19,550 nucleotides of DNA from Nitrospinota bacterium (GTDB lineage: Bacteria > Tectomicrobia > Entotheonellia > J063): assembly GCA_003696125.1 (NCBI GenBank), contig RFHZ01000234.1, positions 1 through 19,550 of the forward strand. Reading direction: 5' to 3'. The notes under the pieces were generated by a model that saw only the letters and a program-made list of their open reading frames with translations, was not told the origin of the DNA and did no database searches. A program made the translations under genes and the position numbers. Numbering within the stretch: position 1 is the first letter of the stretch; each line of letters starts with the position of its first letter. Shown here piece by piece: positions 2,221 through 18,640 of the stretch.

Positions 2221-2279
2221 TGAGTGTGGGAAAGCTGAGAGCGTAGTGGTTGATAGAGTGGGAAAGGAGAAAAAAAGGG

Positions 2280-2516
2280 ATGGGCATGGAGGCAACATCG
2301 GTGAAGAAAAAAGAGCAGATACAAGCGAAGAAACCGGTAGAGATCGAAGTCGTCGAGGTATGGTGTAAGGGATGTAACATCTGTGTCCAGATCTGTCCCA
2401 AGGATTGTCTGGCCTTGGATAAGAACGGAAAGGTAGAAGTGGTGCATCTGGAGAACTGCTCTCGCTGTCTTCTGTGTGAGCTCTTATGTCCTGATTTTGC
2501 CATCAGGATTCGCTAG
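2280..2516 (+). CDS. korD: 2-oxoacid:ferredoxin oxidoreductase, delta (2x[4Fe-4S] ferredoxin) subunit
   Basis: This 78-residue protein has two classical [4Fe-4S] motifs, CKGCNICVQICP and CSRCLLCELLCP, each CxxCxxCxxxCP, separated by a short beta hairpin. This is the KorD/PorD layout, in which the subunit moves electrons from the catalytic beta-subunit cluster to external ferredoxin. I chose ATG 2280 because AAGGAGA (2264-2270) lies about 9 nt upstream; ATG 2286, two codons further on, is an alternative. An upstream TTG at 2250 keeps the frame open but has no ribosome-binding site. It is the first gene of the delta-alpha-beta-gamma operon, 12 nt before the alpha gene. The Lys/Glu-rich N-terminal 20 residues look unstructured. 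Confidence 0.9.
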   Translation: MGMEATSVKKKEQIQAKKPVEIEVVEVWCKGCNICVQICPKDCLALDKNGKVEVVHLENCSRCLLCELLCPDFAIRIR

Positions 2517-2528
2517 GGAGAGGAGACC

Positions 2529-3674
2529 ATGGAGACAGCCAAGAGAGTACGGCGGTTTATGCAGGGCAACAAAGCCTGTGCCGAAGCAGCGATTGCGGCG
2601 GGGTGTCGATTCTATGCCGGTTATCCGATTACCCCCTCTTCGGAGATTGCCGAGGAGATGGCGGTGTTGCTGCCCCGTGTGGGAGGGAAGTTCATCCAGA
2701 TGGAGGATGAGATCGCCTCGATGGGGGCTGTGATCGGAGCTTCGGTGGGGGGACTCAAAGCGATGACCGCGACCAGCGGTCCCGGGTTTTCCTTGAAGCA
2801 GGAAAATTTGGGGTATGCCATCTTTACCGAAATTCCCTGTGTGGTGGTGAATGTCATGCGCGGTGGACCGAGTACCGGTCTTCCTACGGCGCCCTCCCAG
2901 GCCGATGTCCTCCAGGCCCGCTGGGGAACGCATGGAGACCATCCCATCATCGTCCTCGCTCCCGCCTCGGTAAAAGAGATCTATGAATTGACCTTTCAGG
3001 CGTTTAATCTGGCCGAAGCCTTGCGGACTCCGGTTATTCTCTTATACGATGAGGTGATCGGGCATATGCGGGAGACGGTAGAGATTCTCGACCCACCCGC
3101 CTATGAGATCGTTGAACGCAAAAAACCTTTTTCTCCACCCGAAGAGTATCTCCCTTACGCACAGACCGAAGACGATGTGCCTCCCATGGCCAGTTTTGGT
3201 GAGGGATATCGGTACCATATCACCGGGTTGGTCCACGATGAACGGGGCTACCCGACGCAGGATCCTGCCGTGACAGAGGCACTGCAGCGTCGGCTGCATC
3301 GAAAGATCACCCGTCATCTCGACCAGATCCTCCGCTGGGAGGAGTTGGCCTTAGAGGACGCAGAGATCGCCATCTTCGCCTATGGGATTACCGCTCGTTC
3401 AGCCAGACAGACGGTCAAGATGGCCAGGGAAGCCGGAATGAAAGTTGGACTCTTCCGGCCGATCACCCTCTGGCCTTTTCCCGAGGAAGCGGTGACCCGG
3501 CTGGCGGCTCGGGTCGATCTGATCGTGGTGGCTGAGCTGAACCTGGGGCAGATGATTTATGAAGTCGAGCGGGTGAGCGGAGGGAGAGCGCGGGTTGTAG
3601 GCTGTCATAAGGTGAGCGGGGAGCCGCTCGCTCCCTGGGAAATCTGGCACGAGATCCAGCAAGCAGCCGGATAA
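2529..3674 (+). CDS. korA: 2-oxoacid:ferredoxin oxidoreductase, alpha subunit (KorA type)
   Basis: The 381-residue protein carries GYPITPSSEI (31-40), the signature of domain I of the OFOR alpha subunit, and TSGPGFSL (82-89). The central domain contains LRTPVILLYDEVIGHMRE, and the C-terminal domain (about 270-380) has the transketolase-like fold with FAYGITARSARQTV. With beta it forms the TPP-dependent site that oxidatively decarboxylates a 2-oxoacid to acyl-CoA, CO2 and reduced ferredoxin. The sequence type is closest to 2-oxoglutarate (Kor) enzymes, but substrate cannot be fixed by eye; branched-chain 2-oxoacids (Vor) are possible. ATG 2529 follows GGGAGAGGAG. The beta gene follows after 33 nt. 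Confidence 0.92.
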   Translation: METAKRVRRFMQGNKACAEAAIAAGCRFYAGYPITPSSEIAEEMAVLLPRVGGKFIQMEDEIASMGAVIGASVGGLKAMTATSGPGFSLKQENLGYAIFTEIPCVVVNVMRGGPSTGLPTAPSQADVLQARWGTHGDHPIIVLAPASVKEIYELTFQAFNLAEALRTPVILLYDEVIGHMRETVEILDPPAYEIVERKKPFSPPEEYLPYAQTEDDVPPMASFGEGYRYHITGLVHDERGYPTQDPAVTEALQRRLHRKITRHLDQILRWEELALEDAEIAIFAYGITARSARQTVKMAREAGMKVGLFRPITLWPFPEEAVTRLAARVDLIVVAELNLGQMIYEVERVSGGRARVVGCHKVSGEPLAPWEIWHEIQQAAG

Positions 3675-3707
3675 GAAGCTGCTGTAACCCTGAAGGAGGT
3701 TTTACCT

Positions 3708-4538
3708 ATGGTTGACTACCTGCAGTATCTCCGTCGAGAGATGTTTCCCCATATTCTGTGCCGGGGCTGTGGGCACGGCATTACGCTGAAAGCGATTCTT
3801 CGGGCTATTGAGCATGTGGGTCTGGACAGAGACCGGATCGCCGTCATCTCGGGGATCGGGTGTTCCGGGCGTCTCTCCGGCTATATGGATTTTTGCACCA
3901 TGCATACGACCCATGGACGACCCCTGGCCTTTGCCACCGGACTCAAGCTGGCCCGGCCCGAGCTCTCCGTGATCGTGATCACCGGTGATGGAGACAGCCT
4001 GGCCATCGGGGGTAATCACCTCATTCATGCCGCCCGCCGGAACATCGGGATCACCTGCCTCCTGCTCAACAACCGTATCTACGGCATGACCGGAGGACAG
4101 GTCGCTCCCACCACCCCGGAACAGCAGTTTGCCACCACCATGCCCTATGGGAATATCGATCCGACCTTTGATGCGTGCCGGCTGGTAGAAGCGGCCGGAG
4201 CCAGCTATGTGGCCAGAGGCACGGTTTATCACGCGGCAAACCTGGAGAAGCTGATTGCCGGTGGTTTGCAGAATGAGGGATTCTCCTTTATCGAGGTGTT
4301 GACCACCTGTCCCGAGATCTACGGCAGGCGAAATCGCCTGGGAACGGCTGCAGAAATGGTCCTGGCCTTGCGCGAGATGACCATCTCCCAGCAACGGGCC
4401 AAGAGCATGGCTCCCGAGGATCGCGAGGGGAAGATCGTGACCGGAGTGCTCCACCATGTCTCCAGACCGGAGTACACCGCCGTCTATGAAACAATTATCC
4501 AGAAAGCTCAGGCACTGCAGAGCGAGAAAGTCGGGTAG
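3708..4538 (+). CDS. korB: 2-oxoacid:ferredoxin oxidoreductase, beta (TPP-binding) subunit
   Basis: The 276-residue protein begins with the cluster-ligand motif CRGCGHG (18-24). A further cysteine lies at 52 (GIGCSGR) and others after HTTHG, so the proximal [4Fe-4S] cluster ligands appear intact. The TPP/Mg motif runs from GDGD (93-96) to NN (121-122) and ends in IYGMTGGQ. HTTHGRPLAFATGLKLA is the usual KorB segment. ATG 3708 has AAGGAGG (3692-3698) upstream. The gene lies between alpha and gamma in one operon, with no sign of damage. Confidence 0.93.
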   Translation: MVDYLQYLRREMFPHILCRGCGHGITLKAILRAIEHVGLDRDRIAVISGIGCSGRLSGYMDFCTMHTTHGRPLAFATGLKLARPELSVIVITGDGDSLAIGGNHLIHAARRNIGITCLLLNNRIYGMTGGQVAPTTPEQQFATTMPYGNIDPTFDACRLVEAAGASYVARGTVYHAANLEKLIAGGLQNEGFSFIEVLTTCPEIYGRRNRLGTAAEMVLALREMTISQQRAKSMAPEDREGKIVTGVLHHVSRPEYTAVYETIIQKAQALQSEKVG

Positions 4539-4555
4539 AGAGGTCAGCGCGAGCG

Positions 4556-5116
4556 ATGAGTTTCCGATACGAGATCAGGTTGAGTGGTGAGGGGGGACAG
4601 GGGATGATCCTGGCCAGCATCATCTTCGCCGAAGCAGCAGCCATCTATGAGGGGAAGAATGTGGTGCAGAGCCAGGTCTATGGTCCGGCTTCGCGGGGTG
4701 GAGCCACCAAGGCGGAGGTGATCATCAGCGATGAGGAGATCGATTACCCTAAGGCCACCTCCCTCGATTTCCTCCTTGCCCTCACCCAGGAGGCATGCGA
4801 CAAGTACTGGAAGGATCTGAAAGAGGGGGGGATACTGGTCGTCGATTCGTCCCGGGTCCATACCGTTCCCCAGGGGAATTTTACCATCTATCGCGTTCCC
4901 ATCATCGAAACCGCCCGGGAGAAGATCGGAAAGGAGATCGTCACCAATATCGTCTCCCTGGGGGTAATCACCCCCCTGATCGGCATTGTCTCCCCGGAGA
5001 TGGTGGAACAGGCCATCAACGACCATGTTCCTAAAGGGACCGAGGCGTTAAACCGGCAGGCATTCCACGCCGGGCTGGAACTCGGCCAGCTGCTGAAGAA
5101 TGCCCGCACGGCTTAA
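4556..5116 (+). CDS. korC: 2-oxoacid:ferredoxin oxidoreductase, gamma subunit
   Basis: The 186-residue protein opens with LSGEGGQGMILASIIFAEAA, the glycine-rich GxGGQG signature of OFOR gamma subunits, which bind CoA. Next come VQSQVYGPASRGGATKAEVI, with the conserved RGG, and an alternating alpha/beta fold. It begins 17 nt after the beta stop; the ribosome-binding site (AGAGAGG, about 13 nt upstream) is weaker than those of its neighbours. This is the last gene of the first OFOR operon and it converges on the second OFOR locus with only 55 bp between the stops. No stem followed by a T-run is visible in that gap. Confidence 0.9.
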   Translation: MSFRYEIRLSGEGGQGMILASIIFAEAAAIYEGKNVVQSQVYGPASRGGATKAEVIISDEEIDYPKATSLDFLLALTQEACDKYWKDLKEGGILVVDSSRVHTVPQGNFTIYRVPIIETAREKIGKEIVTNIVSLGVITPLIGIVSPEMVEQAINDHVPKGTEALNRQAFHAGLELGQLLKNARTA

Positions 5117-5171: not shown

Positions 5172-6524
5172 CTAGCTCGACACCGGATGGTTCAGTACCG
5201 TATCCACCGCCTTAAGGTAGTCGGCAGCCTGTTCTCCATAGGTCTCGCTGATAGCTGCCTGATAAGCTTCGAGCGGAAAGAGGCCACTCAGCTTGAGGTA
5301 GAGACCGAGACCGGCAGCAGCGGCCAGCTTGCCAGAAGCCAGACGGCGGAGGGGCAGGGAAACGCATCTGGCCGCACTCTGGGGTTGCGGCAGGGTGGAG
5401 TCGATGATCACCATCGCTTCTGGAGAGAGACGATCGAGGATCCTCCTTCCCTGTAAGGTCTGCCAGCCGTCTTCCGAGACGATGATGACCCCATCGGCCT
5501 GCTCGATGCCGGTATAGAGGATCGGCTCCGGGCTTATCCCCACTTCGGAGAAGGAAAACCCGGTCCCCTGTGTGACCGGATTATCGTTCTTCTGGGTGGA
5601 GTACAGGCCAGACATGACCGCGGCCTGACAGAAGAGGCGGGCTGAGGATTGGACACGTTCCCCGGCAGAACCGCTCACCACCAGGCCTACCGGCCGGGTC
5701 AGGGTATGCTGGAAGCGGATAGGGATGGAGTCGTCGCTGGCCTGCACCTCGGTGCGGGGGTATTTCTCTTTATACGCCTGCCCGAAATCTGCCCTCTGCT
5801 CCCGCCGTACAAGTACTCCGGTGCTCCACCCCTGCTGGGCCACAACCTCCTTCAGGCGCTTGCCGGTCAGTTCATTCAACCGGGGACCAAAGGCGGTACA
5901 GAGTTCAACCGCCTCTACCAGGGCAAAACCGGGATAGGCGATGGCTTCGGAGATGACCTCAGGGAGATCGTGGTCGGTGGCAAACTTTCGTGCCACAAAA
6001 CCGGCTCCACAGCTCTGCATCATCTGGCAGATATCTAAGGGGGGAACGATATTCCCCCTGCGGGTGGTGGTGGTAATAAAGCCCAGGGGAGAGAGGGCGG
6101 AGTTCTGGCCACCGGTCATCCCGAAGAAGAGGTTGTTGTGGAGGATTACGGTAACATCGACGTTAAGCTGGGCAGCATGGACCAGATGCACCAGCCCGAT
6201 CATCGCCCCCCCATCACCGATCAGCACCACGGTCTTCAGCTTTCCCTCGGCCAGGATCCGATCGGCCAGGATGGTTCCGACGGCAAAGGCGGTCGAGCGG
6301 CCATGCGTGGTATGCACGGTATGCACGCTTTTAAAGAGGGCATCGGCCAACCCGACACAGCCGATATCGGTGGTGATATCCACATCGCTCGGATTAAGCT
6401 GTAGCTTGACCAGAGCGGCATCGAGTGCACGAATGAGTTGGCCATGGCCACAACCCTTGCAGTAAGGGAACTGCGGTTCATCAACCAGGTAAGAAGTACA
6501 GGTAACCACCTCACCGGTTTCCAT
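5172..6524 (-). CDS. Fused OFOR beta-gamma subunit with a degenerate gamma domain
   Basis: This is one 450-residue chain. Residues 20-250 are an OFOR beta subunit: CKGCGHG (22-28), a further Cys56 and the TPP motif from GDG (103-105) to NN (130-131) followed by FGMTGGQ. Residues about 276-445 resemble a gamma subunit, with RPVGLVVSGSAGER at the start and alternating alpha/beta segments after it. The gamma signature GxGGQG has become GSAGER (285-290), and the later RGG motif is replaced by QGTG. CoA binding by this half may therefore be lost or altered. I chose ATG 6524 because AGAGGAG sits 7 nt upstream; an in-frame extension to 6575 adds 17 residues without a ribosome-binding site. It follows its alpha gene by 78 nt. 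There is no ferredoxin subunit gene in this locus. Confidence 0.85.
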   Translation of the reverse strand: METGEVVTCTSYLVDEPQFPYCKGCGHGQLIRALDAALVKLQLNPSDVDITTDIGCVGLADALFKSVHTVHTTHGRSTAFAVGTILADRILAEGKLKTVVLIGDGGAMIGLVHLVHAAQLNVDVTVILHNNLFFGMTGGQNSALSPLGFITTTTRRGNIVPPLDICQMMQSCGAGFVARKFATDHDLPEVISEAIAYPGFALVEAVELCTAFGPRLNELTGKRLKEVVAQQGWSTGVLVRREQRADFGQAYKEKYPRTEVQASDDSIPIRFQHTLTRPVGLVVSGSAGERVQSSARLFCQAAVMSGLYSTQKNDNPVTQGTGFSFSEVGISPEPILYTGIEQADGVIIVSEDGWQTLQGRRILDRLSPEAMVIIDSTLPQPQSAARCVSLPLRRLASGKLAAAAGLGLYLKLSGLFPLEAYQAAISETYGEQAADYLKAVDTVLNHPVSS

Positions 6525-6602
6525 GATAAGACTCCTCTTTTTTCTTGAGACGATGTTGGTGATCCATGAGTCCATGAGATGCTGGCCTGGGGAGCAGACC
6601 TC

Positions 6603-7730
6603 TCAAGACGGCAGCACAGAAAGGATCTCCGCCGGGCTGATCATGCCCCCGATCTTATTGACTCCCAAGACCTCTTTCCCCGCAAAGAGGTGCCGGATCA
6701 GGCTCCGGTACTGTCCGGTCAGGTTCTCTTCGGCAATGACGATGCATTCCGCATCCTTGGCCGCCTGCAGGATGGCCTGCTCCGGAATCGGGAACAGGGT
6801 GAGCAGTTGCAGGAAGGAGACGGTTCGTCCCTCTTTCTGCGCCATCCTTGTCGCCTCTTTTGCGCTGCGAGCGGTGATGCCGAAGCTGATGATTAACGTC
6901 TGGGCTCCCGGCTGGAGATCGGCTTTGACCATGGTCATCTCTGCCGTCCGGGAGACGATCTTCTGCTGCAGGTGGGTGAGCACCTCCAGGGTTTCCGGGT
7001 CGTTTTTCTTCAGCCGGCCCAGCTTGTTATGTGCCGAACCGGTCAGGGTGACTTTGTACCGGCCCCCTACCGGGGAGAAAGGGGGAACCTCTTCCGGTTT
7101 GTGGAAGAAGTAAGGGATAAACTCCTCTCCATTCGCCGGGGTGAAAAGCTTTCTCTCTATAATGGGGATGGAGGGTAAGGCGGACAGGTCGATGCTCTCT
7201 GCGGTCATCCCCACCTCTTTATCAGAGAGGAGAACCACCGGCGTACGGAGCGTTTCTGCCCAGTTAAAGGCGTGGATGGTCAGCTCATAACACTCCAGGG
7301 GATTACTGGGGCAGAAGACAGGGATGGTATACCCCCCTGAGGTGACAAATTCGGTCAGCAGGATATCCCCCTGGGCTCCCTGCGTGGCCCCTCCGGTACT
7401 CGGTCCCAGGCGCTGGACCAGGACGATCACGACCGGCGTTTCCGTCATGATGGCGTACTGTACCGTCTCACTCATCAAACACCAGCCAGGACCCGAGGTG
7501 GCAGTCATCGCCTTAAAACCCCTCATGGAGGCACCAACACAGTAGCAGAGCACGGAAATCTCGTCCGGAGCACTGATGGCCACATCACCCTGTGCCGGCA
7601 GCTTTTCCGTCATCAACTGATAGATGCTTGAGGCCGGGGTGATCGGGTAGCCACTGAAGAAGCGACAACCAGCGGCCAGTGCTCCTTCTACCACCATCTG
7701 ATTGCCTGAACGGATAGCCATCTTGCGCAT
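6603..7730 (-). CDS. Second OFOR alpha subunit
   Basis: The 375-residue protein carries GYPITPASSI (27-36), ATSGPGW and ETLRTPVVLLSDKEVGMTAE, the same domain I and central landmarks as the alpha subunit encoded at 2529-3674, from which it is clearly diverged. The C-terminal domain has ISFGITARSAKEATRMA. It should pair with the beta-gamma chain encoded next. ATG 7730 has AAGGAGAG 8 nt upstream. The gene lies 33 nt downstream of the SH3b/YidD-like gene, so it probably shares the trxB transcript. The substrate is not readable from sequence; the paralogue may be for a different 2-oxoacid or for the reverse, reductive direction. Confidence 0.9.
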   Translation of the reverse strand: MRKMAIRSGNQMVVEGALAAGCRFFSGYPITPASSIYQLMTEKLPAQGDVAISAPDEISVLCYCVGASMRGFKAMTATSGPGWCLMSETVQYAIMTETPVVIVLVQRLGPSTGGATQGAQGDILLTEFVTSGGYTIPVFCPSNPLECYELTIHAFNWAETLRTPVVLLSDKEVGMTAESIDLSALPSIPIIERKLFTPANGEEFIPYFFHKPEEVPPFSPVGGRYKVTLTGSAHNKLGRLKKNDPETLEVLTHLQQKIVSRTAEMTMVKADLQPGAQTLIISFGITARSAKEATRMAQKEGRTVSFLQLLTLFPIPEQAILQAAKDAECIVIAEENLTGQYRSLIRHLFAGKEVLGVNKIGGMISPAEILSVLPS

Positions 7731-14004: not shown

Positions 14005-14853
14005 ATGCCGGAGAGGATCACCCCGGCCCAGAGGATGTGGTGGACATTCAAGAGGAACAAGACCGCCCTGGTGGGGGCGGTAGGAGTATGCATCATTTTT
14101 GTGCTTGCAGCCGTAGGCCCGTTCTTCATGCCTTACGATCCTGTAGAGCAGCATCTCATGGACCAGTTGAAGCCTCCCTCCAGACAATACCTGTTTGGGA
14201 CAGATGTGTTCGGTCGCGACGTCCTCTCCAGGGTGGTGCTGGGGGCGCGGTTCTCTCTCATGGTCGGCCTCAGCTCGGTGATGATCGCGGTGGTGTTGGG
14301 GGTTCCTCTCGGGATTATCGCCGGGTATAAAGGGGGGACGATCGATACGGTGATTACCCGGGTGGTGGACATCTTGATGTCCTTTCCGGTGCTCATTTTG
14401 GGATTGATGATCAGAGCAGCCATAGGCGGGGGACTCACCGGGCTGGTGCTGGCCATCGGCATATCCATTACGCCTCGTTTTATCCGGCTGGCGCGTGGCC
14501 CGACCATCTCCATTCGGGAGAAGGAGTATGTAGAGGCGGCCAAGGCCATGGGGGTCAATGAGTTCAGGCTAATGTTCAGGCATATCCTGCCCAACGTCAT
14601 CAGCGATGTGGCGGTGATGTCAACCCTCTGGATCGCCCTGGCCATAAGGCTGGAGGCCAACCTGAGCTTTATCGGCATCGGGATCCCGCCGCCGACCCCT
14701 TCCTGGGGGGAGATGATCCGGAGCGGGGTGGACTTCCTGGTCAATGCCCCCTGGATCTCCTTTATTCCAGGGATGTTCATCCTTTTCACCGTCATGTCCT
14801 TCAACATGATCGGGGACGGGATTCGCGACATCATCGATCCCCGGCTGGATTAA
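14005..14853 (+). CDS. ABC transporter permease, DppC type
   Basis: The 282-residue protein has the DppC N-terminus: the cytoplasmic segment WWTFKRNKTALVGAVGV, the first helix, then FMPYDPVEQ and FGTDVFGRDVLSRVVLGARFSL. The EAA loop is EYVEAAKAMGVNEFRLMFRHILPN, and the C-terminus has FIGIGIPPPTPSWGEMI and DGIRDIIDPRLD. GAGGGGAAAGG precedes ATG 14005. It is the last gene of the transporter operon. No ABC ATPase gene (DppD/DppF) follows; the operon ends at the terminator near 14926-14963, so the ATPases must come from elsewhere. Confidence 0.93.
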   Translation: MPERITPAQRMWWTFKRNKTALVGAVGVCIIFVLAAVGPFFMPYDPVEQHLMDQLKPPSRQYLFGTDVFGRDVLSRVVLGARFSLMVGLSSVMIAVVLGVPLGIIAGYKGGTIDTVITRVVDILMSFPVLILGLMIRAAIGGGLTGLVLAIGISITPRFIRLARGPTISIREKEYVEAAKAMGVNEFRLMFRHILPNVISDVAVMSTLWIALAIRLEANLSFIGIGIPPPTPSWGEMIRSGVDFLVNAPWISFIPGMFILFTVMSFNMIGDGIRDIIDPRLD

Positions 14854-15391: not shown

Positions 15392-15421
15392 TTGACACTC
15401 TCACACTCTGCAAGATATACT
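15392..15421 (+). promoter_or_regulatory. Sigma-70 promoter of the restriction-modification operon
   Basis: TTGACA (15392-15397) is separated by 18 bp from TATACT (15416-15421). Both boxes are near consensus. Transcription would begin near 15428, giving a leader of about 70 nt before the methyltransferase ATG. Confidence 0.65.
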
Positions 15422-15496: not shown

Positions 15497-17548
15497 ATGC
15501 GGCAACCGATACAACTAACCCTCAATTTTCATTCCCCCCGTAGTAGTCAGCCGCAAAGTGCCGGTACGCAAGCCGTACCGATCGATGACACCTTCCCCGA
15601 GGATGCCGCAAATGCCCTGGCAACGCTTGAAGCGTTTAATAAACACCTCTATCGACCCAATACGTACCTGCATAAGTGGTGGGCACGGCGTTCAGGGACA
15701 ACGTTTCGGTATATTCTCAAACAGCTTGTATCTGACTCCACTAAACAGGATTTCTACGCACCGGGGGGGTTAGAGGGCAAAGTGATCCTTGATCCGATGA
15801 TGGGTGGGGGGACTATCCTCCATGAAGCCATTCGCATGGGAGCAAACGTCATCGGAGTCGATATCGATCCCATACCTGTCCTGCAGGCAAAAGCCACCTT
15901 AACGATATCCTCTCTGAGGCATAAGCAAGCCATCTTCAATCGGTTTTTTGACGCACTGCGGGAGCGCTTAGCTCCGTTCTATCGAACGACCTGTCCTCAC
16001 TGTGACCAAGAGGCTGAGGTCCAATTTATCCTGTACGGATTGCGCAGAACGTGTTCCTGCAGGGAAGTCGTCTTTGTTGACCGTCTTCTGTTGCGACAGG
16101 ATAAAGATCACGATGTCTACCTCTGTCCCAGTTGTCGAGAGGTTTACGTCGGTCTCAACCATTCCTGCTGCCGTCAAGGTGATACCCGAATCATGACAAA
16201 AGGGACGCAATGGTGTGAAGCATGCGGGACGGCGTTTACAGACATTCTCAACGAACCGTTTTCGCAACGGTATACCCCCCTTGTCGTGGTGGGGCAGTGT
16301 CCCCAACACCGACAGTTTTTCAAAGGGATAGCAGAAGACGATATGATGCTGTTGACGCAGGCTGCCCATCGCAGTCAACAAAGCCGTTTGAGGGATGCCG
16401 AGCACTTCCAGATACCCCCAGGGCCGAAATCGGACGATCTCCTCCGTAGAGGGATTACCTCTTTTCGTGAATTATTTACCCCACGCCAGTTACTTTATTT
16501 GGATACGTCATTGGAACTGCTGTCAACACTCCCTCATGGGGATCGCCTGTGGCTGGCCTTGTTACTCTCGACCTCGTTGGAATTCAATTCCCTTCTCTGT
16601 GGGTACAAAGGTGGTGATCTTCACCGGCCAGGAGCGATTCGTCACGTCTTCTCTCATCATGCCTATTCCTTTCCGTACACGGCTCTGGAAAATAACCCGA
16701 TATTCTCCGGGAACACATCAGGCACTCTGCATCGCCTCTTTAATGATCGCATCGTAAGAGCGGGACAATGGGCAATTGCCCCGACTGAAACTCGGATGAT
16801 CAATGGTCGTCGTACAAAAGTCTCTCTACCAGGTGAGATAGATGGTGGAACGCCTGTATATGACTGGGAAGCAGTGACCCAGGGCGAGCGGAATTTTCTG
16901 ATACTCCAGGCAGACTCTGCTATCCTAGACATTCCCGAAGCGATAGTCGATTATGTGGTTACCGACCCTCCGTATTATGATAGCGTGCAGTACAGTGATC
17001 TCTCCACCTTCTTTCGGGTCTGGCTTCGCCTCTTCCTCCCCACTGAAATAGACTGGTGTTACAACCCCTTGGCATCGGCGGTATCAGAGGGAAACATGGA
17101 TGGCGATCGTAAGTACGGTGCGGTGCTGGAGAAGATTTGGAAAATGTGCTTTCGAGCGCTCAAAAAAGAACATGGGCGACTTATCTTTACCTTCCATCAC
17201 TGGCATCCTGCAGCATGGGCAGCTTTAACCCTGTCGTTGAAGCACGCGAGATTTGTCTTGATGAATCGGTATGTTGTATTCTCTGAAAATCCCATCTCGG
17301 TGCATATTCGTGATCTTAAAGCCCTCAAGCATGATACGATTCTCGTGCTCAAACCAGATACTGGAGATGAGCCCTGTCGTCACTGGCCCAAACCTTCTGT
17401 GATTGACACCTCCGATAGCTATACCTTTTGTCGTGACTGTGGGACCGCATTAGGATGGTTTCTGCTCTCTGACTATAGTGCAGCCCAGATTCGGCATGCG
17501 TGGGCACAGTTACTCGAAGGGAAAGGCAATGCCAAGGCAGCCGGCTGA
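15497..17548 (+). CDS. Zinc-ribbon DNA amino-methyltransferase (COG1743/DUF1156-like)
   Basis: The 683-residue protein is an AdoMet-dependent N6-adenine or N4-cytosine DNA methyltransferase. KWWARRSG (60-67) resembles the HLWWARRP segment of DUF1156 methylases. Motif I is DPMMGGGT (99-106), followed by GVDIDP (120-125). Catalytic motif IV is TDPPYYDS (489-496). Between them sits an insert of about 350 residues rich in metal-ligand cysteines: CPHC (166-169), CSC (186-188), CPSC (210-213), CC (224-225), CEAC (240-243). A last pair, CRDC, is at 645-648. It should protect host DNA from the endonuclease encoded next, whose start overlaps this gene by 20 nt. ATG 15497 follows AGGAGCAGGAG. Base use is visibly more AT-rich than the transporter genes, suggesting transfer. 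Confidence 0.82.
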   Translation: MRQPIQLTLNFHSPRSSQPQSAGTQAVPIDDTFPEDAANALATLEAFNKHLYRPNTYLHKWWARRSGTTFRYILKQLVSDSTKQDFYAPGGLEGKVILDPMMGGGTILHEAIRMGANVIGVDIDPIPVLQAKATLTISSLRHKQAIFNRFFDALRERLAPFYRTTCPHCDQEAEVQFILYGLRRTCSCREVVFVDRLLLRQDKDHDVYLCPSCREVYVGLNHSCCRQGDTRIMTKGTQWCEACGTAFTDILNEPFSQRYTPLVVVGQCPQHRQFFKGIAEDDMMLLTQAAHRSQQSRLRDAEHFQIPPGPKSDDLLRRGITSFRELFTPRQLLYLDTSLELLSTLPHGDRLWLALLLSTSLEFNSLLCGYKGGDLHRPGAIRHVFSHHAYSFPYTALENNPIFSGNTSGTLHRLFNDRIVRAGQWAIAPTETRMINGRRTKVSLPGEIDGGTPVYDWEAVTQGERNFLILQADSAILDIPEAIVDYVVTDPPYYDSVQYSDLSTFFRVWLRLFLPTEIDWCYNPLASAVSEGNMDGDRKYGAVLEKIWKMCFRALKKEHGRLIFTFHHWHPAAWAALTLSLKHARFVLMNRYVVFSENPISVHIRDLKALKHDTILVLKPDTGDEPCRHWPKPSVIDTSDSYTFCRDCGTALGWFLLSDYSAAQIRHAWAQLLEGKGNAKAAG

Positions 17549-18359
17549 AGTATTTGGACACGCTCTGGGAGAGACCTCAGGGCAAGCGGTGGAAGATCGG
17601 AGTCGGTATCGGTGTCCTTTTCGTAACCACAAGTGCGACAAACAGAGCCGACTTATCCCCTATCCTATGGGAGTGTGCTCTGTGCACTATGGTGATCGGA
17701 TCATTGCCGTATGCCCAAGAAGATTTTTACAAGATAGCATTGTGTTTCAGCATATTGCGGATCACTATTTCGGCACCCAGAGTGATCTGGTGGTTTTTCA
17801 GGAGCTCAGTTTATCTCCTGTTGGGACATTCGACTATGTGATGGTACACCATAAACCTCTAAGTAGCGACGTTGTGGATTTTGTTATGATCGAATTCCAG
17901 ACAGGGCAGACGACAGGCACAGGTGGGTTGGTCAAAGGGCTTGAAGACTTTCTGCAGGGAGAAGAGATGGCCGGTAAGGATTATCGTTTTGGACTCAATT
18001 TGGCGGATATTTGGAAACGGTCTTTTACCCAGATCCTCAACAAAGGGGTAGTGCTGGAACGCTGGGGTCACAAAATCTACTGGATTGTGCAAGAGCCTGT
18101 CTATCAAAACCTTGTAGACCGTTATAACCTCAGAGATATGACCTACCACCCGAACCATAGTACAATTTTTATGATATACGATATCAGACAGAAGGCCGAG
18201 GGTTACGAGCTATTTCAGACCCGAATCGAATCTTCTACCATTGATGACTTGTTCAGCGCTTTCCGCCATAATCCTCATATCCCCCCTAAAGACGCTTTTA
18301 TCCAGAAGCTGCAACGCAGACTAAAAGCCAAAATGGAGTTAAAGATACAGCTTGGCTAG
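17529..18359 (+). CDS. NotI-like type II restriction endonuclease
   Basis: The 276-residue protein matches the NotI family as I know it. A Cys4 metal site comes first: CPFRNHKC (Cys29, Cys36), PMGVCSV (Cys50), VCPRRF (Cys62); in NotI this is an iron-binding fold that helps contact DNA. The PD-(D/E)xK-type core follows: Glu92 (FQEL), Asp102 (GTFDYV) and Glu122-Phe-Gln124 (IEFQTG). NotI uses Glu/Asp/Glu-x-Gln in the same order and similar spacing. A basic tail (KLQRRLKAKMELKIQ) ends the protein. It is shorter than NotI (about 383 residues), so its DNA-recognition parts probably differ, as may its site. ATG 17529 lies within the methyltransferase gene, pointing to translational coupling. An upstream GTG at 17478 is in frame but less likely. 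Confidence 0.78.
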   Translation: MPRQPAEVFGHALGETSGQAVEDRSRYRCPFRNHKCDKQSRLIPYPMGVCSVHYGDRIIAVCPRRFLQDSIVFQHIADHYFGTQSDLVVFQELSLSPVGTFDYVMVHHKPLSSDVVDFVMIEFQTGQTTGTGGLVKGLEDFLQGEEMAGKDYRFGLNLADIWKRSFTQILNKGVVLERWGHKIYWIVQEPVYQNLVDRYNLRDMTYHPNHSTIFMIYDIRQKAEGYELFQTRIESSTIDDLFSAFRHNPHIPPKDAFIQKLQRRLKAKMELKIQLG

Positions 18360-18513: not shown

Positions 18514-18524
18514 GATTTTCCTGA

Positions 18525-18609
18525 TGCCGAGGGCCGGACTCGAACCGGCACGGGCACAGGGCCCGTTGGATTTTAAGTCCAACGTGTCTACCAATTCCAC
18601 CACCTCGGC
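18525..18609 (-). tRNA. tRNA-Leu (anticodon TAA)
   Basis: On the minus strand the gene starts GCCGAGGTGGTGGAATTGG and ends GCCGGTTCGAGTCCGGC, CCTCGGC, A. The acceptor stem GCCGAGG/CCTCGGC is perfect. The anticodon arm is TTGGA-CTTAAAA-TCCAA, giving anticodon TAA, which reads UUA/UUG. A long variable arm (CGGGCCC TGT GCCCG region) marks a class II tRNA, and the T arm has GGTTCGAGTCC. The 3' CCA is not encoded; TCA follows the discriminator A. The gene lies between the restriction-modification operon and the second solute-binding protein gene. Confidence 0.97.
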
Positions 18610-18640
18610 AAGCGGTACACCTTCCCCTGGGGTCTGTAAT

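What the first reader, a model, noticed from the sequence alone, without database searches (positions are those of the whole stretch)
15497..18359. NotI-like restriction-modification operon with a zinc-ribbon DPPY methyltransferase
Seen: a 276-residue protein with four cysteines in a CPFxxxxC...GVCSV...CPRRF arrangement and an E...D...ExQ catalytic order, whose gene overlaps a DPPY methyltransferase gene by 20 nt. Known: NotI is an 8-bp cutter with a Cys4 iron fold and an E/D/E-x-Q active site. Inference: this is a complete type II system. The endonuclease is about 100 residues shorter than NotI, and the methyltransferase carries an unusually large cysteine-rich insert between motifs I and IV. 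The site may therefore be new, and may be long and rare. Both proteins would use metal-binding modules near DNA.
Basis: partly seen in the sequence, partly recalled or inferred. Interest (0 to 1): 0.75.

Follow-up and report, generated by a model that had tools for sequence, protein, structure and literature searches.

The report
NotI-type nuclease with zinc-ribbon methyltransferase partner
Two overlapping genes almost certainly encode a complete DNA-defence pair, a cutting enzyme of the NotI family and a methyltransferase that would protect the host's own DNA; the same pairing recurs in distant bacteria, its target sequence is unknown, and it is an uncommon combination of two known parts rather than a new kind of system.

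Summary
At 15497-17548(+) lies a 683-aa DPPY methyltransferase and at 17529-18359(+) a 276-aa nuclease, overlapping by 20 nt. The nuclease passes Pfam NotI (51.8 bits, cut-off 22). Its predicted fold matches NotI crystal structures (Z 14.0; next 7.6). Its only four cysteines and its E92/D102/E122-x-Q124 residues align with NotI's. The pair is inherited together: four further genomes carry both genes (42-64% identity), once with a damaged nuclease. Trees show two-sided shuffling: NotI-family nucleases pair with at least five methyltransferase types (D12 by far commonest), and zinc-ribbon methyltransferases with at least three other nuclease types; this combination forms one clade on each side. 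DPPY favours m6A, which would exclude GCGGCCGC, but DPPY enzymes making m4C are known. Verdict: a type II restriction-modification system, new variant of a known kind; specificity undetermined.

The parts
15392..15421 (+). possible sigma-70-like promoter (TTGACA-18-TATACT, 11 of 12 matches) ahead of the operon
   Evidence: consensus match only, 8 sites found against 4.9 expected by chance in the region
15497..17548 (+). zinc-ribbon DPPY amino-methyltransferase, 683 aa (motif I - Cys-rich insert - motif IV order)
15962..16867 (+). insert of about 300 aa (residues about 156-457) between AdoMet-binding and catalytic halves; zinc-ribbon-like cysteines at residues 166-243; presumed target-recognition region
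   Evidence: role inferred
17529..17548 (+). 20-nt overlap of MTase end and REase start (translational coupling inferred); same 20 nt in the closest relative
17529..18359 (+). NotI-family restriction endonuclease, 276 aa
17613..17714 (+). Cys4 metal-site segment of the nuclease (C29, C36, C50, C62)
17802..17900 (+). catalytic segment of the nuclease (E92, D102, E122-x-Q124)
18523..18610 (-). tRNA-Leu (taa) whose 3' end faces the operon; lies at the border of the lower-GC segment

Best explanation
A complete type II restriction-modification system. The MTase, an AdoMet-dependent amino-methyltransferase whose Cys-rich insert probably reads the DNA, would methylate one base, most likely adenine N6, in each strand of a target site. 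The NotI-type PD-(D/E)xK nuclease, held by a Cys4 metal module and using E/D/E-x-Q with Mg2+, would cut the same site when unmethylated. The MTase is encoded first and the REase start overlaps its end, so protection would be made first and the nuclease by coupled translation. Shown by computation: families, active-site residues, fold, recurrence and joint inheritance of the pair. Inferred: activity, methylated base, metal, dimeric palindromic recognition. Unknown: the site.
For: PF12183 over cut-off; a profile of the NotI family finds NotI 3bvq/3c25 at E 1.1e-7 with the cysteines, E145, the FDW aspartate and E-x-Q in register; predicted fold of the nuclease gives Foldseek E 1.8e-7 to 3bvq and VIA Z 14.0 over 217 residues to 3c25, next unrelated chain Z 7.6. 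MTase: N6_N4_Mtase over cut-off, class I core built from both ends of the chain, residues about 32-160 and 457-623. Both genes side by side in four other genomes, MTase 49-64% and REase 42-63% identical where whole; tight junctions (overlap 20, 20, 1 and 1 nt, or a 4-nt gap). Both trees put the window's genes next to the same relative (L164) and the NotI-linked MTases in one clade at 100/100. One relative (L168) has lost part of the nuclease beside an MTase open as far as the contig reaches, the usual direction of decay.
Against: No activity or methylome data. The nuclease model is of middling confidence (pLDDT 67.5; residues 38-47 and most of 126-161 under 50). The subfamily profile alone finds no PDB chain, so the link to NotI rests on the wider family profile, Pfam and the fold. 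The closest relative has Ser in place of C62.
Confidence: 0.92

Rival explanations
1. The two genes are a fragment of a larger BREX-, Hma- or DISARM-like defence system whose MTase is of the DUF1156/HmaB/PglX kind.
For: Weak matches of the MTase to PADLOC HmaB, PglX and DUF1156_MTase models and to NCBIfam anti-phage DUF1156.
Against: Far under the curated cut-off (73 bits against 1000 for NF042963). No helicase, ATPase or PglZ gene is seen in the window: neighbours are ABC-transporter genes and a tRNA. In relatives the pair stands without such genes too.
Confidence: 0.03
2. The nuclease has the same GCGGCCGC specificity as NotI.
For: Same family and fold.
Against: Low identity (16-19%); the family pairs with at least five unrelated MTase types, which speaks for several specificities; the DPPY partner favours adenine, absent from GCGGCCGC. 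But DPPY m4C enzymes exist (PMC3425538; PMC2890505).
Confidence: 0.05
3. The nuclease is inactive and only the MTase works (orphan methylation).
For: Such decay is seen in a relative (L168).
Against: In the window the frame is intact and all catalytic and Cys positions are present.
Confidence: 0.05
4. The system is a rare cutter with a 7-8 bp site, as the first reader proposed (a sub-case of the best explanation).
For: NotI itself has an 8-bp site.
Against: No data bear on site length; protein length does not tell it, as about 270-310 aa is common in the family.
Confidence: 0.3

Closest known systems
NotI (PDB 3BVQ, 3C25; Pfam PF12183)
   Same: PD-(D/E)xK fold, Cys4 module, E/D/E-x-Q active site, 217 residues aligned in structure
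   Different: 276 against 383 aa, under 20% identity, specificity unknown
NotI-family REase + D12-class MTase pairs (Thermus brockianus plasmid and hundreds of genomes)
   Same: NotI-family nuclease with an overlapping or adjacent MTase gene
   Different: nuclease only about 28% identical; MTase is D12 class without zinc-ribbon insert; gene order REase then MTase
Zinc-ribbon DPPY MTases with other nucleases (Tabrizicola, Acidiphilium plasmids; viral contigs)
   Same: MTase family, motif order, C210/C213, adjacent nuclease-like gene
   Different: 25-31% identity; nuclease is of another PD-(D/E)xK-like type (YPDF...EIKG, FDQAPDF...IEAK, SPDMV...IEVKK)
Sister NotI-type nucleases with a 525-aa TSPPY MTase (L166, L204, L205, L207/L208)
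   Same: nuclease about 41-43% identical to the window's
   Different: unrelated MTase with TSPPY motif and no zinc-ribbon insert
DUF1156 / BREX-related adenine MTases (PMC12839542)
   Same: adenine-type MTase with N-terminal DUF1156-like helical region and a target-recognition insert inside the core
   Different: below curated cut-offs; no BREX-related genes nearby

Membership tests
NotI restriction endonucleases (PF12183) | Match to the Pfam model over its curated cut-off | tested here: met
   51.8 bits against 22, E 9.2e-14
NotI restriction endonucleases (PF12183) | Active-site residues E, D, E-x-Q in order | tested here: met
   E92, D102, E122, Q124 invariant across the family and aligned with NotI
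NotI restriction endonucleases (PF12183) | Four cysteines of the metal fold | tested here: met
   C29, C36, C50, C62 in the window protein; metal itself not tested
NotI restriction endonucleases (PF12183) | PD-(D/E)xK core as in NotI | tested here: met
   Z 14.0 to 3c25, 13.9 to 3bvq; next chain 7.6
NotI restriction endonucleases (PF12183) | Iron bound in the Cys4 site | not testable with these tools
   needs metal analysis of purified protein
NotI itself | Recognition of GCGGCCGC | not testable with these tools
   no methylome or cleavage data
Type II restriction-modification system | Separate adjacent REase and MTase genes that stay together across genomes | tested here: met
Type II restriction-modification system | Same site cut and methylated | not testable with these tools
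   needs cleavage and methylation assays
DUF1156 (PF06634) | Match over the Pfam cut-off | tested here: not met
   17.1 bits against 24
anti-phage DUF1156 protein (NF042963) | Match over the NCBIfam cut-off | tested here: not met
   73.4 bits against 1000
DNA amino-methyltransferases (N6_N4_Mtase, PF01555) | Match over the Pfam cut-off, motif I and DPPY | tested here: met
   43.4 bits against 26.7; motifs at 99-106 and 490-493
alpha-group amino-methyltransferases | Order X-I-TRD-IV with DPPY | tested here: inconclusive
   order motif I - insert - DPPY fits (definition in PMC2890505); that the insert is the TRD was not tested

The most novel reading that the evidence does not exclude
A NotI-fold endonuclease subfamily that recognises a new A/T-containing, possibly long palindrome, read on the methylation side by a zinc-ribbon target-recognition module; the family would then be a set of related nuclease scaffolds with several distinct, still unread specificities.
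Probability: 0.3. Interest if true: 0.5.

Novelty: new variant of a known kind. Interest (0 to 1): 0.36.

Why it matters
NotI is a rare 8-bp cutter with a solved structure, yet its relatives are little described: three paper searches made for NotI-family, M.NotI and NotI-like systems found nothing in the held library. Here one nuclease family is seen with at least five unrelated methyltransferase types, and one methyltransferase family with several nuclease types. Since both partners of an RM pair must read the same site, such swaps make a natural test of how specificity is matched between unrelated proteins, and offer candidates for new cutters. The window's pair alone is an uncommon but understandable member.

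Tried and rejected
Close relatives by exact peptide patterns in genome and viral contigs: none. No phage record matches either protein. phmmer of the single nuclease finds no PDB chain, nor does the subfamily profile; only the wider family profile does. Alignment A1 was too diverse for a pattern search. No integrase gene is evident in the window's ORF list and no direct repeat of the tRNA end flanks the operon, so integration at tRNA-Leu is not shown. The NotI structure paper PMC2390919 is not held, so base-contacting residues could not be compared. Foldseek of the MTase model gives only general class I methyltransferases.

Full report
What is there. The window is one whole contig (C549) of a 4.18-Mb, 990-contig genome from a phylum of which only five genomes are held. 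Most of it has 53-61% GC; from 15 kb to 19 kb it drops to 47-51%. This segment lies between a peptide-transporter-like gene cluster ending at 14853 and a tRNA-Leu gene at 18523-18610 on the minus strand. It holds two intact genes on the plus strand: a 683-aa methyltransferase (15497-17548) and a 276-aa nuclease (17529-18359), overlapping by 20 nt. Lower GC and the tRNA border fit horizontal gain, but no integrase gene or flanking repeat was seen.

Nuclease. It passes Pfam's NotI model (51.8 bits against 22). Its only cysteines are C29, C36, C50 and C62, and E92, D102, E122, Q124, K163, R164, Q168, K172 and W179 are among the residues invariant in diverse relatives. A profile of six family members finds the NotI crystal sequence (3bvq, 3c25; E 1.1e-7) with the cysteines, E145, the FDW aspartate and the E-x-Q motif in register. 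AlphaFold2 on the window protein with 14 relatives gave pLDDT 67.5, pTM 0.70; Foldseek ranks the NotI entries 1-4 (E 1.8e-7) and VIA-align gives Z 14.0 over 217 residues against 7.6 for the next chain. So family membership is well supported. Residues 38-47 and most of 126-161 are modelled poorly.

Methyltransferase. It has motif I at 99-106, DPPYY at 490-494 and passes N6_N4_Mtase. In the model the class I core is made of residues of about 32-160 and 457-623, with about 300 residues inserted. The insert carries ten cysteines between residues 166 and 243 in the window protein. It is not peculiar to this gene: relatives at 25-31% identity on plasmids and viral contigs of bacteria and archaea have it, and C210 and C213 are invariant in an alignment of 11. 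Within the NotI-linked clade the middle cysteines are partly lost in L165 and L168, while C166, C169, C645 and C648 stay. A DUF1156 label is below Pfam's cut-off, and the NCBIfam anti-phage DUF1156 model is far below.

Is the pair real? Sampling 1,568 genomes in four phylum-wide draws, around a Pseudomonadota, a 'Deltaproteobacteria', a Chloroflexota and a Nitrospirae genome (named after the record titles of the centres), found the nuclease subfamily in a few. In four of these genomes the neighbour is the zinc-ribbon MTase: L164 (MTase 63-64%, REase 62-63% identical to the window's), L165 (52%, 45%), L167 (49%, 42-43%) and L168 (MTase about 53%, cut by the contig end; REase shortened by an internal deletion). 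Junctions are tight in all: overlaps of 20 nt (window), 20 (L164), 1 (L167) and 1 (L168), and a gap of 4 nt (L165). In sister nucleases (L166, L204, L205, L207/L208) the neighbour is instead an unrelated 525-aa TSPPY MTase.

Partner shuffling. Among all NotI-family loci held, the MTase next door was D12-class in 117, a cytosine-C5 enzyme in 12, and zinc-ribbon in the loci named above, some genomes being counted twice because loci overlap. Of 11 loci that scored 'none' by those queries six were inspected: five carry a beta-class TSPPYW MTase next to the nuclease, the sixth (L116) shows none on the short piece held. On the nuclease tree partner labels are strongly clustered (5 changes, least possible 4; shuffled mean 18.2), and the window's clade has 100/99 support. 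On the MTase tree the five NotI-linked enzymes form one clade at 100/100; other zinc-ribbon MTases have at least three other nuclease types beside them, judged from PD-(D/E)xK-like motifs read by eye (YPDF...EIKG, FDQAPDF...IEAK, SPDMV...IEVKK). The two YPDF-type proteins tested had no Pfam match.

How it most likely works. A type II system in which the MTase marks a site and the NotI-type nuclease cuts it when unmarked. The expected order of synthesis (MTase first, REase by coupling) follows from gene order and overlap; this is inference. The DPPY motif favours N6-adenine, and then the site must hold A and cannot be GCGGCCGC. This is not firm: M.CbeI has DPPY and makes m4C (PMC3425538), and M.Sbo13I is a probable m4C enzyme with DPPY (PMC2890505). 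Site length is unknown. Shortness against NotI means nothing, since most relatives have about 270-310 residues.

Assessment. The extrapolation to a new, long, rare site has no support yet. The added value is the evidence that the pair is an inherited unit in several distant genomes and that both partners belong to families that swap partners.

Noticed in passing
L022-L103 (genome and viral contigs): A NotI-family nuclease with a D12-class MTase, mostly 60-75% identical to a Thermus plasmid copy; 273 genome-contig stretches encode relatives of the query, and the best 80 span many phyla including methanogenic archaea: a remarkably widespread and uniform RM pair.
   Followed up: partly
L164:7768-8595: The closest relative of the window nuclease has Ser instead of the fourth metal-site cysteine (C62).
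   Followed up: no
L168:7002-7520 (-): Nuclease gene shortened by an internal deletion next to a zinc-ribbon MTase that is open as far as the contig reaches.
   Followed up: partly
L027, L048, L113: A stop codon falls within the matched stretch of these NotI-family nucleases while an MTase is found next door: possible decay, or a stop near the end of the stretch; not checked.
   Followed up: no
L166, L204, L205, L207/L208: Sister NotI-type nucleases paired with a 525-547-aa TSPPY MTase, mainly in the Nitrospirae-centred sample.
   Followed up: partly
L015:1543-2370, L016:3120-3938, L177:3120-3968: Unannotated ORFs of about 275 aa (YPDF...EIKG) overlapping zinc-ribbon MTase genes look like an undescribed PD-(D/E)xK restriction nuclease family; no Pfam or PADLOC match for the first two.
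   Followed up: partly
window 2250-5116 (+) and 5172-7730 (-): Two neighbouring, oppositely oriented gene sets that read like 2-oxoacid:ferredoxin oxidoreductases (judged from translations, no family search).
   Followed up: no
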